Below, in pieces: positions 3,123 to 7,765 of a stretch of DNA of 64,000 nucleotides (position 1 is its first letter; every line of letters starts with the position of its first letter). Position numbers and translations under genes: made by a program. The stretch is from Aquipluma nitroreducens. Lineage in GTDB: Bacteria > Bacteroidota > Bacteroidia > Bacteroidales > Prolixibacteraceae. The stretch is taken from positions 4,641,501 to 4,705,500 of the forward strand of contig NZ_AP018694.1 in assembly GCF_009689585.1 (NCBI RefSeq), given 5' to 3'. The notes beneath the pieces were generated by a model, which had not been told where the DNA came from, searched no databases, and was given only the letters and a program-made list of their open reading frames with translations.

Positions 3123-4043
3123 TTAGTTGAAAATACGGTCGTATAAAATACCTTCCCGCAAGGCATAGTCGGTTTGGTATATTTTTTTGATATTTAGACG
3201 ATCAATAACCAGTTTGATAAACAAAACCGAAGGAACAATCATCTCGATGCGAATGGATTCCATGCCTTTCATTTCGGTTCTTTCGGCAGTTGTTGACTTG
3301 ATTAGAGTTTCATATACCCGCGTAAAGTCATCTGTTGCAATTTCTTGTTTAATCCTTGTTTTTGTTCCTGGATTGGTTTGGTCGATTAAATCTGCCAACG
3401 TATCGAAAGCACCCGAACAGCCGATCAATAAGGGAATTTGAATATTATTTAACTGTTGCCAAAGTGGCTCCAACCGGCTGTCAAACCAGTCGTTGATTTG
3501 CTCAATCTCTTCCGGTGTAATGGGATTGGAGGGTGGTATTTGTTCGATGATGCGGGCCATTCCCAACGGAAAACTTTGTTTCCAGATGGGTTCGTTGTTT
3601 CGCGTCAGGATAAATTCATTGCTTCCGCCGCCAATGTCAAGAATAAGCGAATGGTCTTCTATTTCATCAAAAGCCAGTTTCACTCCGTCAAATATCAGTT
3701 GAGCTTCTTTTTCTCCGGAAATAATCTGCAAGTCAAGACCCGTATTCGCCTTGATTTGTTGCTGAAACCAATCCTGGTTGGTTGCATCACGAATAGCAGA
3801 AGTGGCGATTATTACTACTTCAGAAACACTGAATTGACTAATTCGTTCCAGATGTTTCCGGATAGCCAGAATGGCACGTTCCAATCCATCTTCGGTCAAC
3901 CTGTTTTTGTCGATGCCGTTTTTGCCAAGTTTAACAACCTCTTTTCCCTGATATAGAATTTGATAGGATTTGTCCTGGTACTCTGCAATTAGTAAGTTGC
4001 AGGTATTGGTTCCGAGGTCGATAACAGCAATTTGTCTCTTCAT
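3123..4043 (-). CDS. ppx: Ppx/GppA family phosphatase
   Basis: A 306-residue member of the exopolyphosphatase/guanosine-pentaphosphatase family (ASKHA fold). The N-terminal phosphate-binding loop is I-D-L-G-T-N-T-C-N-L-L-I, and the second glycine motif is I-L-D-I-G-G-G-S-N-E-F. The length fits the short form with the two ASKHA lobes and without the C-terminal HD-like extension of E. coli Ppx. It degrades polyphosphate or converts pppGpp to ppGpp in the cytoplasm; which of the two cannot be told. First gene of a probable operon with the two-component genes (34 bp to the regulator), hinting at a phosphate- or stringency-linked circuit. Confidence 0.88.
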   Translation of the reverse strand: MKRQIAVIDLGTNTCNLLIAEYQDKSYQILYQGKEVVKLGKNGIDKNRLTEDGLERAILAIRKHLERISQFSVSEVVIIATSAIRDATNQDWFQQQIKANTGLDLQIISGEKEAQLIFDGVKLAFDEIEDHSLILDIGGGSNEFILTRNNEPIWKQSFPLGMARIIEQIPPSNPITPEEIEQINDWFDSRLEPLWQQLNNIQIPLLIGCSGAFDTLADLIDQTNPGTKTRIKQEIATDDFTRVYETLIKSTTAERTEMKGMESIRIEMIVPSVLFIKLVIDRLNIKKIYQTDYALREGILYDRIFN

Positions 4044-4136
4044 TCTGAGTGGGGAATATTTTAGGCTAACGAAGTTAGCGTTTCATATTTAAAATGACCA
4101 GATTGAAATTGAATTTTCGGCATTTCATTACCAAAC

Positions 4137-4163
4137 AAAAAAGGCCGGTAAAACCAGCCTTTT
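4137..4163 (-). terminator. Intrinsic terminator of cysK
   Basis: On the minus strand an 8-bp GC-rich stem (AAGGCTGG / CCGGCCTT) is followed by a T run. It lies 25 bp past the cysK stop codon. Confidence 0.82.
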
Positions 4164-4186
4164 GTATTTTATAATTTGATTGAATA

Positions 4187-5098
4187 TTAAAACAATCCTT
4201 CAATCGATAAATAGCGTTCGCCAGTATCGTAAGCGAAAGTGAGTATTTTTGCTCCTACGGGCAGTTCGGCAATTTTCTTGGCAACAGCAGCCAGTGAAGC
4301 GCCTGACGAAATTCCAACGAACAAACCTTCTTCTTTAGCTGCACGACGGGCATAATCAAAAGCTTCATCTTTCGAAATCTGGATGGTTCCATCAATAGCT
4401 TGCGTATGCAGGTTTACCGGAATAAAACCAGCACCAATTCCCTGAATTGGGTGAGGACCAGGATTTCCACCACTAATTACAGGTGACAATTCTGGCTCAA
4501 CAGCAAAGGTTTTCAGATTTGGGAATTTCTGTTTCAACACTTCGCTTACTCCGGTAATGTGTCCGCCTGTTCCAACTCCGGTGATCAGGTAGTCAAATCC
4601 TTCCGGAAAATCAGCCAGGATTTCTTTCGCAGTATTTTGTTTGTGTGCTTCGATGTTGGATGAATTATCGAATTGAGAAGGAATCCAGGCATCGGGCGTT
4701 TCGGCGGCCAATTCGTTAGCTTTGGCAATAGCGCCTTTCATTCCCAATTCACGTGGTGTTAAAACCAGTTCTGCTCCATATGCAGTAAGGATTCTACGGC
4801 GTTCAATACTCATCGATTCAGGCATAACCAAAATCAGTTTATACTTTTTAACTGCGGCAACCAAGGCCAAACCAATTCCGGTATTTCCTGAAGTTGGTTC
4901 AATCAGAACGCTTCCATGTCTCAAGATTCCTTTTGCTTCGGCATCCTCAACCATCGAAAGAGCGATGCGGTCTTTGATACTGCCGCCCGGGTTGGTTTTT
5001 TCTACTTTTACATACACTTCGTATCCTTCAGGATACAGGTTGTTAATTCGTACCAAAGGACTGTTTCCGATGGTTTCCAAAATGTTGTTTACTTTCAT
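4187..5098 (-). CDS. cysK: Cysteine synthase (O-acetylserine sulfhydrylase)
   Basis: 303 residues, the usual CysK length. It makes L-cysteine from O-acetyl-L-serine and sulfide in the cytoplasm with PLP. Visible: I-G-N-S-P-L-V at the N-terminus, PLP-lysine K42 in N-P-G-G-S-I-K-D-R, the substrate loop T-S-G-N-T-G, the PLP-phosphate loop G-T-G-G-H, and the G-I-G-A-G-F segment. The gene stands alone between two hairpins: its own terminator at 4137-4163 and a terminator in its leader (5140-5169) preceded by a short ORF with three Cys codons in a row. That arrangement points to cysteine-responsive transcription attenuation. No Shine-Dalgarno is apparent, as usual in this phylum. Confidence 0.95.
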
Positions 5099-5139
5099 AT
5101 TATTGTATTTTAAGGTTCTTATCTTTCGTTTCTATTAAC

Positions 5140-5169
5140 AAAAAAAGCCTTCCGGTGTTCGGAAGGCTT
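5140..5169 (-). terminator. Leader terminator (candidate attenuator) upstream of cysK
   Basis: On the minus strand AAGCCTTCCG pairs perfectly with CGGAAGGCTT (10 bp, 5-nt loop) and runs into seven T. It lies after a short Cys-rich ORF and 41 bp before the cysK start, so it cannot terminate anything but the cysK leader or read-through from the ABC genes. The leader segment GAAGGT (5219-5214, minus) can pair with GCCTTC of the stem (5167-5162), a possible antiterminator. Confidence 0.78.
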
Positions 5170-5192
5170 CGATATTATCTCTTTTATGTCTT

Positions 5193-5273
5193 TCAAATGT
5201 TCGTTGAAAACATACCTTCTCCTGACCGTTTATAGCAGCAGCACATATACATGTATGAGAAATTTGCTTTCAT
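5193..5273 (-). CDS. Cysteine-codon leader peptide of cysK
   Basis: A 26-codon ORF not followed by any long frame. Its core reads Y-M-Y-M-C-C-C-Y-K with three consecutive TGC codons (5243-5235), then ends at a TGA 24 bp before the terminator hairpin. Cysteine codons are rare in these genomes, so a run of three directly ahead of the cysteine synthase gene is unlikely by chance. In established amino-acid attenuation (trp, his; Cys-rich upstream ORFs in mycobacteria) ribosome stalling at such codons prevents formation of the terminator. A -7-like box TATACTTG lies 24 bp upstream. The peptide itself probably has no function beyond its translation. Confidence 0.72.
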   Translation of the reverse strand: MKANFSYMYMCCCYKRSGEGMFSTNI

Positions 5274-5296
5274 TCTTTTCTTTAATCTTTGTATTG

Positions 5297-5304
5297 CAAG
5301 TATA
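5297..5304 (-). promoter_or_regulatory. Putative -7 box of the cysK leader
   Basis: TATACTTG on the minus strand fits TAnnTTTG in seven of eight positions and would start RNA some 15-20 nt before the leader-peptide ATG. I could not place a convincing -33 TTG at the usual spacing. Confidence 0.35.
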
Positions 5305-5342
5305 ACAAAAAAGTCAAACAAAATACATTTTTATCTTTTATT

Positions 5343-6689
5343 TTAATTTTTATAGAATAACCACTTAACAATTTCTTTAAGATTCACTTTTTTCCCATAC
5401 ATCAAAATGCCTGTCCGGTATATTTTTCCTGCGACCCAGATTGTTCCCAAAATAGTTGCCAGCAAAATGGACATTGAAAGAATGATCTGCCAGACCGGAA
5501 TCCCGAATGGAATACGTGCCATCATGGTTACCGGCGATGTAAAAGGAATCATAGAGGCCCAGAAAGCCAACGAACCTTCGGGATTTTTAGCAACCGACAT
5601 AACCATGATGATGGAAGCAATCAATGGTAAGGTTACAGGGAGCATCATTTGCTGGGCATCTTCATCGCTATCGACGGCAGAACCAATGGCTCCCATGAGT
5701 GATGCATACAAAATAAAGCCGCAAATGAAATAAAAGAACAGCGCAAAGATGATCAATGGAATGTTTAAGTTGCCTATTAAACCAATGATTTCAAGAACCT
5801 TGTTCTGGGCTTCGGGTGAGCTGGCTGCAAGTTGTTCCATTTGTGGGCCTGACATTACATTTTGCGCTTGAGTTGCAACTCCTGCTGATGCACGACCACT
5901 AAATGCCGCAGTTGCGCTTGTAATGGCAGTTCCAAGTATAATCCAGATGGCAATTTGAGTTAACCCAACCAATCCGATTCCGACAATTTTTCCAAAGAGC
6001 AGTTGAAAAGGCTTAACCGATGAAATGATGACTTCTACAATACGGTTGGTTTTTTCTTCCATAACTCCGCGCATAACCATAGTGCCATAGATAAAAACGA
6101 ACATGTAGATAATGAATCCGGCAGCTAACCCAATAATCATTGCAATTTCGCTTGAGCTTTTCACGGCTTTGCCTTCTTCTCCAATTTTAATGGTTTCAAC
6201 TGTGATGTTTGTTTTGGTGGCTGCCAGTTTTCTTTCCAGATCGGGAACTCCTATTTCATCTATAATCTGCTTTTTCTTTTCCGTTTCTATGATCTTTTCG
6301 ATCCGGTTTGAAACAAAGTACTTAACATCCATCGTGACCTGTTTATCCGAAATCATCTCGGCACGGTTGGTATTCAGGATGTTGGTTGGGATATTCAGAA
6401 CAGCATAGTATTTTCCTGATTTGAAATTCTTACTAAGCTCTTTAAATTCCTGTTCAGGTATATAATGAAACTTTGTAAATTCATTGCCTTCAATCCTGTT
6501 CAAAACGAGAGCGGTCGGATCATATACGGCAATAGTACGTTCTTCTTTGTCGTCCATCATGGCCAGATAGGTAGGCAAAATCATCAAGGCAGCCATCATC
6601 AGCGGCATTAAAAGAGTCATGATAATGAACGACTTTTTCTTTACCCTTGTCAGGTATTCGCGTCTTAAAATTAGGAATGACTTATTCAT
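5343..6689 (-). CDS. ABC-2 type permease (NatB-like)
   Basis: 448 residues. Cytoplasmic N-terminal R-R-E-Y-L-T-R-V-K-K-K-S-F, one membrane helix (about 22-45), a large extracytoplasmic domain (about 50-175), then five or six helices including the M-V-M-R-G-V-M-E-E-K-T-N-R-I-V-E-V-I-I-S-S motif typical of ABC2_membrane_3/NatB proteins. Together with the ATPase encoded upstream it forms an exporter; B. subtilis NatAB extrudes Na+, but the substrate here is unknown. The gene starts 131 bp after the ATPase gene; that gap contains a degenerate GC-rich repeat. No terminator is evident directly after it until the cysK leader hairpin. Confidence 0.87.
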   Translation of the reverse strand: MNKSFLILRREYLTRVKKKSFIIMTLLMPLMMAALMILPTYLAMMDDKEERTIAVYDPTALVLNRIEGNEFTKFHYIPEQEFKELSKNFKSGKYYAVLNIPTNILNTNRAEMISDKQVTMDVKYFVSNRIEKIIETEKKKQIIDEIGVPDLERKLAATKTNITVETIKIGEEGKAVKSSSEIAMIIGLAAGFIIYMFVFIYGTMVMRGVMEEKTNRIVEVIISSVKPFQLLFGKIVGIGLVGLTQIAIWIILGTAITSATAAFSGRASAGVATQAQNVMSGPQMEQLAASSPEAQNKVLEIIGLIGNLNIPLIIFALFFYFICGFILYASLMGAIGSAVDSDEDAQQMMLPVTLPLIASIIMVMSVAKNPEGSLAFWASMIPFTSPVTMMARIPFGIPVWQIILSMSILLATILGTIWVAGKIYRTGILMYGKKVNLKEIVKWLFYKN

Positions 6690-6755
6690 ATAGGTTTTGT
6701 TAAATTTTCATTTTCGCTTAAAAAGTGTTAGTCTGCAATTAAGGATGTATTTCAA

Positions 6756-6815
6756 GTTGCGGGATGCGTGTTTCGGGTTCGGTTGTCGCGTAACTCGTAA
6801 CCCGTTTCCCGTAAC
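6756..6815. repeat. Degenerate GTTGCGGG/CCCGTAAC repeat between ABC genes
   Basis: Several variants of GTTRCGGG and its complement CCCGYAAC crowd this stretch and can fold (CGGGTT at 6774 with AACCCG at 6799). It looks like an intergenic repeat element rather than a regulator. Confidence 0.4.
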
Positions 6816-6820
6816 AATTC

Positions 6821-7765
6821 CTACGATTGCGATTGAGCACTTGTTTCGCGGTTATTTTTTTCTACAACATGGATAAACACATCGTTCATGCTTGGGATAA
6901 TTTCTTTGAATGACACGATTTCAAATTGATTCATGAGTATTTTGATTAACTCATTGTTGGAATTGCCGTTCAGGAACTGAACTTTCATTTGTTTCAGGAA
7001 CTTGCTGTCGTCTTGCTCAAGAACATTGAATTGAGCACCTAACCGATGTTGAAAATCCGGAGTTTCACCTTTGTAGGCTATCTCGAAAGTATTGCTTTTG
7101 AATTTTTCTTTCACTTCGTCAATTTGCCCGTCCAGAATCTTTTTCGACTGGTTGATCAATGCAATATGGTCGCAAATTTCTTCTACGGAAGACATATTGT
7201 GTGTTGAGAAAATGATGGTGGTTCCCTGCTTTTTCAGTTCAAGAATTTCATTTTTCATCAAATTGGTGTTGATGGGGTCGAATCCGCTGAACGGTTCGTC
7301 GAAAATAAGCAAGCGGGGTTTGTGAATTACTGTGGTGATAAATTGTACCTTTTGAGCCATTCCTTTCGAGAGTTCCTCTACTTTTTTGCCCCACCAGGCC
7401 TGAATTTCAAACTTTTCGAACCAGTACTTCAGGCTCTTGAGGGCATCTTTTTTCGACATGCCTTTCAACTGAGCCAGATAGAGCGCCTGTTCACCAACTT
7501 TCATTTTCTTATACAGTCCCCGTTCTTCGGGTAAATAGCCAATCTGATAAATATCCTCAGCTTTCATTGGCCTACCCTCGAAAAACAACTCGCCGCTATC
7601 GGGAGCTGTAATTTGGTTGATGATCCGGATCAAGGTTGTTTTACCCGCGCCATTGGGCCCCAATAGACCAAAAATAGACGCTTCCCTAACCGAAATGCTG
7701 ACCGAACTCAATGCGACATGACCAGCATATTCCTTAACAATGTTATTTGCCTGAAATATTTCCAT
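6821..7765 (-). CDS. ABC transporter ATP-binding protein (NatA-like)
   Basis: 314 residues. Walker A G-P-N-G-A-G-K-T (36-43), Q loop region, signature motif L-S-K-G-M (variant of LSGGQ, common in this subfamily), Walker B L-L-I-F-D-E-P-F, D loop and H switch S-T-H-N-M. The C-terminal 90 residues correspond to the DUF4162-type extension seen in ATPases of ABC-2 exporters. It energises the NatB-like permease encoded next. Preceded by rsmD on the same strand with a 124-bp gap that contains only a CCCC-TCTT-GGGG hairpin remnant at 7870-7881. Confidence 0.92.
   Translation of the reverse strand: MEIFQANNIVKEYAGHVALSSVSISVREASIFGLLGPNGAGKTTLIRIINQITAPDSGELFFEGRPMKAEDIYQIGYLPEERGLYKKMKVGEQALYLAQLKGMSKKDALKSLKYWFEKFEIQAWWGKKVEELSKGMAQKVQFITTVIHKPRLLIFDEPFSGFDPINTNLMKNEILELKKQGTTIIFSTHNMSSVEEICDHIALINQSKKILDGQIDEVKEKFKSNTFEIAYKGETPDFQHRLGAQFNVLEQDDSKFLKQMKVQFLNGNSNNELIKILMNQFEIVSFKEIIPSMNDVFIHVVEKNNRETSAQSQS

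What the first reader, a model, noticed from the sequence alone, without database searches (positions are those of the whole stretch)
5099..5342. Candidate cysteine-sensing attenuator: Cys-Cys-Cys leader peptide and terminator ahead of cysK
Seen: on the minus strand, a 26-codon ORF with three successive TGC codons (5243-5235), a TGA 24 bp before a perfect 10-bp stem with a T run, then cysK 41 bp later. A leader segment GAAGGT (5219-5214) can pair with GCCTTC of the terminator arm, and lies just downstream of where a ribosome stalled on the Cys codons would sit. Known: amino-acid leader attenuation (trp, his) and Cys-rich upstream ORFs in mycobacteria. Inference: low Cys-tRNA lets cysK transcription proceed. 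I know of no description in Bacteroidota.
Basis: partly seen in the sequence, partly recalled or inferred. Interest (0 to 1): 0.85.

Follow-up and report, generated by a model that had tools for sequence, protein, structure and literature searches.

The report
Cysteine-codon attenuator before cysK
A short leader peptide with three cysteine codons, followed by RNA that can fold as a stop or a go hairpin, very probably lets these Bacteroidota bacteria switch on cysteine-making genes only when cysteine-loaded tRNA runs low.

Summary
Of 80 cysK upstream regions (20 genus, 60 family), 68 parse as Cys-cluster leader plus intrinsic terminator, 58 of those with Cys-Cys-Cys in all eight TGC/TGT spellings. 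A segment 9-22 nt after the Cys codons complements the terminator's 5' arm and changes with it (0 of 20,000 partner swaps as good); a segment before the Cys codons matches it too, giving trp-type 1:2, 2:3, 3:4. The element occurs in all three frames. Promoter-like motifs precede the leader (59 of 68); none (0 of 68) follows the terminator. Similar leaders precede cysG/J/I genes in the own genome, osmC or cysK2 genes in relatives and cysE-like/cysK pairs in other families of the order; leaders found alongside carry Asn codons before asnA and Ile/Leu/Val codons before ilvD, ilvE, leuA. Ten literature searches listed no Bacteroidota cysteine attenuator; actinobacterial Cys leaders lack terminators, a rhodobacterial one precedes cysS. 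Response to Cys-tRNA is inferred; three of 20 genus regions lack the leader.

The parts
5296..5304 (-). promoter -7-like element TATACTTGC (Bacteroidota type; consensus TAnnTTTG is recalled)
   Evidence: sequence; TA-N2/3-TTG found 8-60 nt before the leader ATG in 59 of 68 upstream regions, 17.3 expected from shuffles, and in 0 of 68 between terminator and cysK
5193..5273 (-). leader ORF, 26 codons, MKANFSYMYMCCCYKRSGEGMFSTNI, stop TGA 5195-5193
   Evidence: conserved Cys-cluster leader in relatives
5257..5272 (-). region 1 (protector): 5272-5265 and 5262-5257 pair with region 2
   Evidence: minimum-energy fold; 1:2 complementarity exceeds partner swaps in relatives
5235..5243 (-). control codons TGC TGC TGC (Cys-Cys-Cys)
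   Evidence: CCC in 58 of 68 parsed relatives, TGC/TGT freely exchanged
5205..5221 (-). region 2 (antiterminator element, core GAAGGT 5219-5214)
   Evidence: complements region 3 in relatives with covariation
5160..5170 (-). region 3: 5' arm of the terminator, shared with the antiterminator
5144..5154 (-). region 4: 3' arm of the intrinsic terminator
5140..5146 (-). T run of the terminator (7 T)
4187..5098 (-). cysK, cysteine synthase A (303 aa)
   Evidence: Pfam PALP; NCBIfam TIGR01139 above its cut-off

Best explanation
It is a ribosome-mediated (trp-type) transcription attenuator specific for cysteine. Transcription starts just before the leader ORF. When Cys-tRNA is plentiful the ribosome passes the three Cys codons, the terminator 3:4 forms, and RNA polymerase stops before cysK. 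When Cys-tRNA is scarce the ribosome stalls on the Cys codons. It then covers part of region 1 and leaves region 2 free, region 2 pairs with region 3, the terminator cannot form, and cysK is transcribed. When the leader is not translated, 1:2 forms and termination is the default. Shown by sequence and comparison: the parts, their conservation, covariation in 2:3 and 3:4, and within-genome matching of 1:2. Inferred: that the leader is translated, that stalling occurs at low Cys-tRNA, the transcription start, and the direction of the response. Two such attenuators were found in the window's genome (cysK; cysG/J/I genes), and relatives add osmC/cysK2 and cysE-like/cysK units, so it probably works as a regulon.
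For: Conservation: 68 of 80 upstream regions parse as Cys-cluster leader plus terminator, 58 of 68 with CCC in all eight synonymous TGC/TGT spellings. 2:3: own-genome pairing score 17.39 against 15.13 (sd 0.25) for swapped partners, 0 of 20,000 as high; on 35 representatives again 0 of 20,000. On alignment A5, fitted to the terminator and not to 2:3, 89.0% of cells pair, with 16 double changes against 5.3 in shuffles (0 of 500), and slid registers are worse. 3:4: 99.3% of cells, 23 double changes against 6.7 (this alignment was fitted to that helix). 1:2: 14.36 against 12.75, 0 of 20,000 (35 representatives: 1 of 20,000); two control pairings show nothing. The element's core stands in frames 1, 0, 2 in 36, 22, 10 leaders. 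Folding the RNA free in a stalled state, before region 4 exists, gives at least 3 expected 2:3 pairs in 67 of 68. Promoter placement. Other leader classes with the same layout before sulfur genes. Codons track the product in related leaders: Asn-asnA, Ile/Leu/Val-ilvD, ilvE, leuA.
Against: No expression, ribosome-profiling or term-seq data. In the genus 3 of 20 regions (L091, L095, L096) have the terminator but neither leader nor its promoter region, so the hairpin can exist without the sensor. In the family 5 of 60 regions show neither by script (L141, L142, L162, L164, L169). In the window the contiguous 2:3 helix is short (6 pairs) and the stalled-state fold gives only 3.0 expected pairs against a mean of 7.5; the stop codon lies 18 nt beyond the GAAGGT core, so a terminating ribosome would not fully cover it. 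On A5 the number of 2:3 pairs with a change on both sides (3) does not exceed shuffles (269 of 500). In class 2 the 1:2 helix does not exceed swaps (4,278 of 20,000). In a phylum sample only 3 of 25 cysK regions outside the own genome have anything similar, one of them with two Cys codons only.
Confidence: 0.9

Rival explanations
1. The hairpin is simply the terminator of the upstream ABC transporter genes, and the Cys-rich ORF is a chance reading frame.
For: Three of 20 genus regions have the terminator directly after the upstream gene without any leader.
Against: Cys codons conserved with synonymous exchange, promoter-like motif before the leader in 59 of 68, element-terminator covariation, and the same layout in other gene neighbourhoods.
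Confidence: 0.03
2. The leader is a sensor, but the signal is not Cys-tRNA: for example stalling by the nascent peptide or by oxidised, metal-bound or sulfide-modified Cys residues.
For: A run of Cys residues could bind metal or react with redox compounds (general knowledge); the peptide before the Cys run is similar inside the genus.
Against: Peptide sequence around the Cys codons varies widely across the family; related leaders use Asn or Ile/Leu/Val codons before asnA and ilv/leu genes, which fits charged tRNA and not thiol chemistry.
Confidence: 0.06
3. A riboswitch or protein-binding RNA controls the terminator and the ORF is incidental.
For: The leader is structured (z -4.36).
Against: No Rfam family reaches its gathering score over window 3500-7000; the match that covers the leader is Phe_leader at 25.4 bits against 55. 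The conserved columns of A1 are the control codons, the element and the terminator; no further aptamer-like block is seen.
Confidence: 0.01

Closest known systems
trp/his-type ribosome-mediated attenuators of Proteobacteria (recalled; mentioned in passages of PMC3766115)
   Same: leader peptide rich in the pathway's amino acid, mutually exclusive 1:2, 2:3, 3:4 helices, intrinsic terminator before the biosynthetic gene
   Different: control codon is Cys; host is Bacteroidota; compact (first Cys codon to terminator stem 60-93 nt)
uORFC-8-2 motif of Rhodobacterales (PMC8632094, passages seen)
   Same: tandem Cys codons in a short upstream ORF plus intrinsic terminator; proposed there to sense Cys-tRNA
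   Different: described as exclusively before cysS (tRNA synthetase) in alphaproteobacteria; here cysteine-synthesis and sulfite-reduction genes in Bacteroidota
Cys leader peptides of Actinobacteria (PMC1262725, passages seen; Canestrari et al. 2020, seen only as a citation)
   Same: runs of Cys codons upstream of cys operons; cysteine-responsive in mycobacteria by the title of the 2020 paper
   Different: PMC1262725 reports no conserved terminator hairpin there; the mycobacterial ORFs are leaderless by that title, whereas here the promoter-like element ends 22 nt before the ATG
Leader-peptide attenuation reported in Flavobacterium psychrophilum (PMC9723704, section 19 read)
   Same: same phylum, leader peptides before amino-acid operons
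   Different: cysteine is not mentioned in that section; conserved 5' elements named there are before pheA, hisG, alaS and others

Membership tests
ribosome-mediated transcription attenuator (trp type) | short ORF with tandem codons for the product of the downstream pathway | tested here: met
   CCC in 58 of 68 parsed cysK leaders; cysK confirmed
ribosome-mediated transcription attenuator (trp type) | intrinsic terminator between leader ORF and gene | tested here: met
ribosome-mediated transcription attenuator (trp type) | antiterminator that excludes the terminator | tested here: met
   swap tests and pair counts
ribosome-mediated transcription attenuator (trp type) | protector pairing 1:2 that overlaps the leader ORF | tested here: met
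   for cysK, for the osmC class; not distinguishable from swaps for the cysG/J class
ribosome-mediated transcription attenuator (trp type) | promoter upstream of the leader and no other before the gene | tested here: inconclusive
   motif evidence only, 59 of 68 before the leader, 0 of 68 after the terminator
ribosome-mediated transcription attenuator (trp type) | translation of the leader and response to charged tRNA | not testable with these tools
   needs experiment
uORFC-8-2 (Rhodobacterales cysS attenuator) | located before cysS in Rhodobacterales | tested here: not met
   before cysK in a genome whose nearest named CysK relatives are Prolixibacteraceae or Bacteroidota MAGs and Sunxiuqinia
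mycobacterial leaderless polycysteine ORFs | start codon at the transcript's 5' end | tested here: inconclusive
   predicted -7 element ends 22 nt before the ATG, so a short 5' UTR is expected; no mapped start site
T-box or other Rfam leader | match to an Rfam family at its gathering score | tested here: not met
   none in window 3500-7000; over the leader the best is Phe_leader, 25.4 of 55 bits

The most novel reading that the evidence does not exclude
Cys-tRNA attenuation is the main control of cysteine synthesis in much of this order. At least four transcription-unit types (cysK; cysG-J-I; osmC with cysK2 or a sulfhydrylase; cysE-like with cysK) carry sequence-distinct leaders with the same 1:2/2:3/3:4 logic, alongside parallel Asn and branched-chain leaders. 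This would imply tight transcription-translation coupling in a phylum that rarely uses Shine-Dalgarno sequences (recalled).
Probability: 0.5. Interest if true: 0.75.

Novelty: new variant of a known kind. Interest (0 to 1): 0.62.

Why it matters
I know of no described regulator of cysteine synthesis for these bacteria (recalled; the listings showed none, and not every listed paper was opened). These leaders give a ready, testable mechanism for several operons at once. Ribosome-mediated attenuation only works if ribosome and RNA polymerase run close together, so a cysteine reporter would also test transcription-translation coupling in Bacteroidota. Compared with the known Cys leaders that I could see, this one is complete: control codons, protector, antiterminator and terminator are all visible, and the two competing switch helices covary.

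Tried and rejected
Rfam search gave no family at threshold. Chance ORF plus unrelated terminator was rejected by conservation and swap tests. A promoter between terminator and cysK was rejected on motif evidence only. Conservation of the peptide instead of the RNA was rejected because the antiterminator core occurs in three reading frames (frames assigned by a simple pattern). The sulfite reductase-cysK paralogue genes of the own genome were checked: the 2.7 kb before them (L254) hold three short ORFs with neighbouring Cys codons but none with a terminator by script. The class-3 model found nothing in the own genome at E up to 1e-4. Matches with plain terminators only (L234; L243, L246, L251) and the L270 hit were discarded as false. 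The literature search 'cysteine attenuation' with 'leader peptide' found nothing.

Rows dropped before counts: of 80 regions, 12 were not used in the pairing tests. L096 was a spurious parse. L091 and L095 have a terminator but no leader. L141, L142, L162, L164, L169 have neither by script. L099 (Cys-Ser-Cys, with terminator), L153, L158 and L168 show a Cys-rich ORF by eye but failed the script. L090 and L102 are cut by contig ends and were not among the 80. Only 60 of 77 family orthologues outside the genus were fetched (the best-scoring ones). In class 2, L202 was misparsed and stayed in the swap test but was left out of A3; L220 was not parsed, and L214 and L288 were not put in. Some named loci (for example L001, L004, L005) are the same contigs as unnamed-genome loci, so one search is not independent of the 80 regions.

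Full report
What was checked. The finding lies on the minus strand of the window, which is part of a single 5.71-Mb contig (G000:C1:4641501-4705500). Its nearest named relatives in a scan with CysK are MAGs labelled Prolixibacteraceae or Bacteroidota, and Sunxiuqinia indica. The downstream gene passes the cut-off of the NCBIfam cysK model. The upstream neighbours are an ABC-2 membrane protein and an ABC ATPase.

Conservation. A search of the genus gave CysK in 22 of 23 genomes. Twenty upstream regions could be read, and 17 of them hold a Cys-cluster leader and the terminator; 15 of the 17 have Cys-Cys-Cys, L099 has Cys-Ser-Cys and L101 Cys-Cys. The other three (L091, L095, L096) have the terminator right after the upstream gene and no leader. 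In the family, 131 of 140 genomes have a CysK match. I fetched the upstream regions of the 60 best-scoring of 77 orthologues (70% identity or more) outside the genus. By script, 68 of the 80 regions (16 of 20 and 52 of 60) have both parts (one spurious parse removed); by eye, four more have a Cys-rich ORF. In the 68, the first Cys pair continues to CCC in 58, and all eight TGC/TGT spellings occur. The distance from the first Cys codon to the terminator stem is 60-93 nt.

The switch. In the 68 relatives, a segment 9-22 nt after the third codon of the Cys run complements the terminator's 5' arm. The arm varies (GCCTTCC, GCCTTTCC, GCTTTCC, CCTTCCTGA and others; 26 segment-arm combinations) and the leader segment varies with it. 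Pairing each leader segment with another genome's arm is worse: own mean 17.39, swapped 15.13 (sd 0.25), none of 20,000 permutations as good. With 35 representatives (less than 75% identical over 80 ungapped nt) the result is the same (17.87 against 15.65, 0 of 20,000). A count on A5 gives 89.0% paired cells and 16 double changes against 5.3 in shuffles (0 of 500), with the true register best. A5 holds 33 of the 35 representatives and was fitted to the terminator only. The measure 'pairs with a change on both sides' does not exceed shuffles there (269 of 500). The terminator itself has 99.3% paired cells and 23 double changes against 6.7, on an alignment fitted to it. The element's core lies in all three frames of the leader ORF (36, 22 and 10 leaders), so its sequence is kept as RNA and not as peptide.

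The third helix. The minimum-energy fold of the window's leader contains a 1:2 helix between the ORF's beginning and the antiterminator element. In relatives, the 42 nt before the Cys run match the element better than swapped partners (14.36 against 12.75, 0 of 20,000; representatives 1 of 20,000). Two control pairings gave 4,001 and 5,768 of 20,000. The matching segment often ends about 13 nt before the first Cys codon, where a ribosome stalled on those codons would cover its end, while the element starts beyond the ribosome's leading edge (footprint sizes recalled). Folding only the RNA free in a stalled state, before region 4 exists, pairs region 2 with region 3 by at least 3 expected pairs in 67 of 68, against 0 of 68 for the means of shuffled upstream halves. 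The window's own value is only just 3.0 (mean of all 7.5). The free leader pairs 1 with 2 by at least 3 expected pairs in 60 of 68. These are equilibrium folds of pieces, not kinetic simulations.

Transcription start. TA-N2/3-TTG, a loose form of the recalled Bacteroidota -7 element, occurs 8-60 nt before the leader ATG in 59 of 68 regions (17.3 expected) and in none of the 68 stretches between terminator and cysK (5.7 expected). The terminator stem ends 23-60 nt before cysK in 59 of 68 regions and at most 144 nt before it, which leaves little room for another promoter.

A regulon. A covariance model of the cysK leader (R1, built from 29 of these leaders) matched 129 of 140 family genomes at E up to 0.01; weak matches include plain terminators. 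I read 34 places that are not next to a listed orthologous CysK match. Three are cysK-type leaders near contig ends (L209, L224, L225), one is a plain terminator (L234), and the other 30 fall into two further classes with different sequences. Class 2 (11 places; leaders such as MNSSLIMAHTMCMCMCMCFNSTFQKVVRI, element CAGAAGG, arm CCTTCTG) lies 12-366 nt before a CysG-N-terminal-like gene followed by a CysJ-like gene, or in L212 and L216 directly before the CysJ-like gene; only the genes of the own genome were tested with profiles, the rest were recognised by eye. In the window's own genome it is at G000:C1:20990-21106. The genes after it are CysG-N-like (above the cut-off of TIGR01470), CysJ and CysI, both above their NCBIfam cut-offs, and HemD-like, NAD-binding and tetrapyrrole-methylase genes. 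Its model R3 matches 17 of 23 genus and 74 of 140 family genomes at E up to 1e-4, cross-matches to other classes included. Class 3 (19 places; leaders such as MIKSLSNSIMCMCCCMLFKRVEGGVMLC) precedes an OsmC-like gene in 16 of 19 and a cysK-like gene in 3; the next gene, where readable, is in several a cysK2 or an O-acetylhomoserine sulfhydrylase-like gene (one example of each gene tested with profiles). R2, the class-3 model, matches 57 of 140 genomes at E up to 1e-4 with cross-matches; places with E below 1e-9 lie in 21 of 140 genomes, and there is no match in the window's genome. Swap tests: class 3 (n 19) has 2:3 8 of 20,000 and 1:2 0 of 20,000; class 2 (n 23) has 2:3 54 of 20,000, while its 1:2 is not different from swaps (4,278 of 20,000). 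Both exceed shuffled sequence.

Breadth. R1 on 393 genomes of the order matched 38 at E up to 1e-4. I read 19 of the 37 listed matches outside the family, most of them the better-scoring ones. Seven are Cys leaders, six of them before a gene followed by a cysK-like gene and one (L253) before cysK itself. One of the six first genes (L238) was tested: it has SATase_N and Hexapep domains and its best NCBIfam matches are serine acetyltransferases, one above and one below the cut-off; a second (L236) gave no NCBIfam match at E 1e-50. Nine others carry a different codon set: Asn-rich leaders before asnA (3, all genes tested), Ile/Leu/Val-rich before ilvD (4; two leaders printed, one gene tested), Ile-rich before ilvE (1) and Ile/Leu-rich before leuA (1). 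Three look like plain terminators. That the codons follow the product is the best general argument that the sensor is charged tRNA. In 77 named cysK loci (500,793 bases, some of them the same contigs as above) a scan for three tandem Cys codons plus terminator gave 11 hits, all just before cysK or about 1 kb before it, and none in three passes of shuffled sequence; two are labelled Ignavibacteriales, one Flavobacterium zepuense. In a sample of 118 genomes of the phylum, 3 of 25 cysK regions outside the own genome had a similar leader, one with only two Cys codons. So it is near-universal for cysK in this family, recurrent in the order, and sporadic beyond.

Literature. Ten searches of the held open-access library listed no cysteine attenuator in Bacteroidota; most listed papers were seen as titles and abstract starts only, and subscription papers are mostly missing. 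Passages of PMC8632094 describe the rhodobacterial cysS attenuator. PMC1262725 passages describe actinobacterial Cys leaders without conserved terminators. PMC9723704 section 19 reports signs of leader-peptide attenuation in Flavobacterium psychrophilum without cysteine. PMC7366714 passages mention short ORFs reminiscent of leader peptides in Bacteroides thetaiotaomicron. PMC3766115 passages list Trp, His, Leu and Thr leaders; no Cys leader is among the passages shown. The mycobacterial paper of 2020 was not held.

Verdict. Translation of the leader and response to cysteine remain to be shown.

Noticed in passing
L239, L249, L250 (asnA); L237, L247, L248, L255 (ilvD); L241 (ilvE); L242 (leuA): Leaders of the same layout in other families of the order with Asn-rich codons before asnA (e.g. 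MTQLLNTNPNNNFNNNLLKWEGFGV) and Ile/Leu/Val-rich codons before ilvD, ilvE and leuA.
   Followed up: partly
L091, L095, L096 (G019, G017, G008), last 130 nt before cysK: Leader and its promoter region absent, terminator present directly after the upstream ABC gene; a TAAATTG motif ends just before the hairpin, so a start inside the hairpin might disarm it (speculative).
   Followed up: partly
L296 (G000:C1:9300-21300): Own-genome sulfite-reduction and siroheme gene run (CysG-N-like, CysJ, CysI, HemD-like, NAD-binding, tetrapyrrole methylase) preceded by a second Cys leader.
   Followed up: yes
L016, 211-109 nt before cysK: Pyxidicoccus fallax (myxobacterium) has a short ORF with five successive Cys codons before its cysK; not followed further.
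   Followed up: no
L035 and L049: Two loci labelled Ignavibacteriales have a CCC leader ending in ...EDIA with a terminator before cysK.
   Followed up: partly
window 4163-4139, minus strand: A second intrinsic-terminator-like hairpin just after cysK, so cysK may be a single-gene transcript.
   Followed up: no
L229 (G000:C1:4513500-4519700): Own-genome run of a NirA-like sulfite reductase with a TusA domain and two cysK paralogues, without a Cys leader plus terminator found by script in the 2.7 kb before it.
   Followed up: partly
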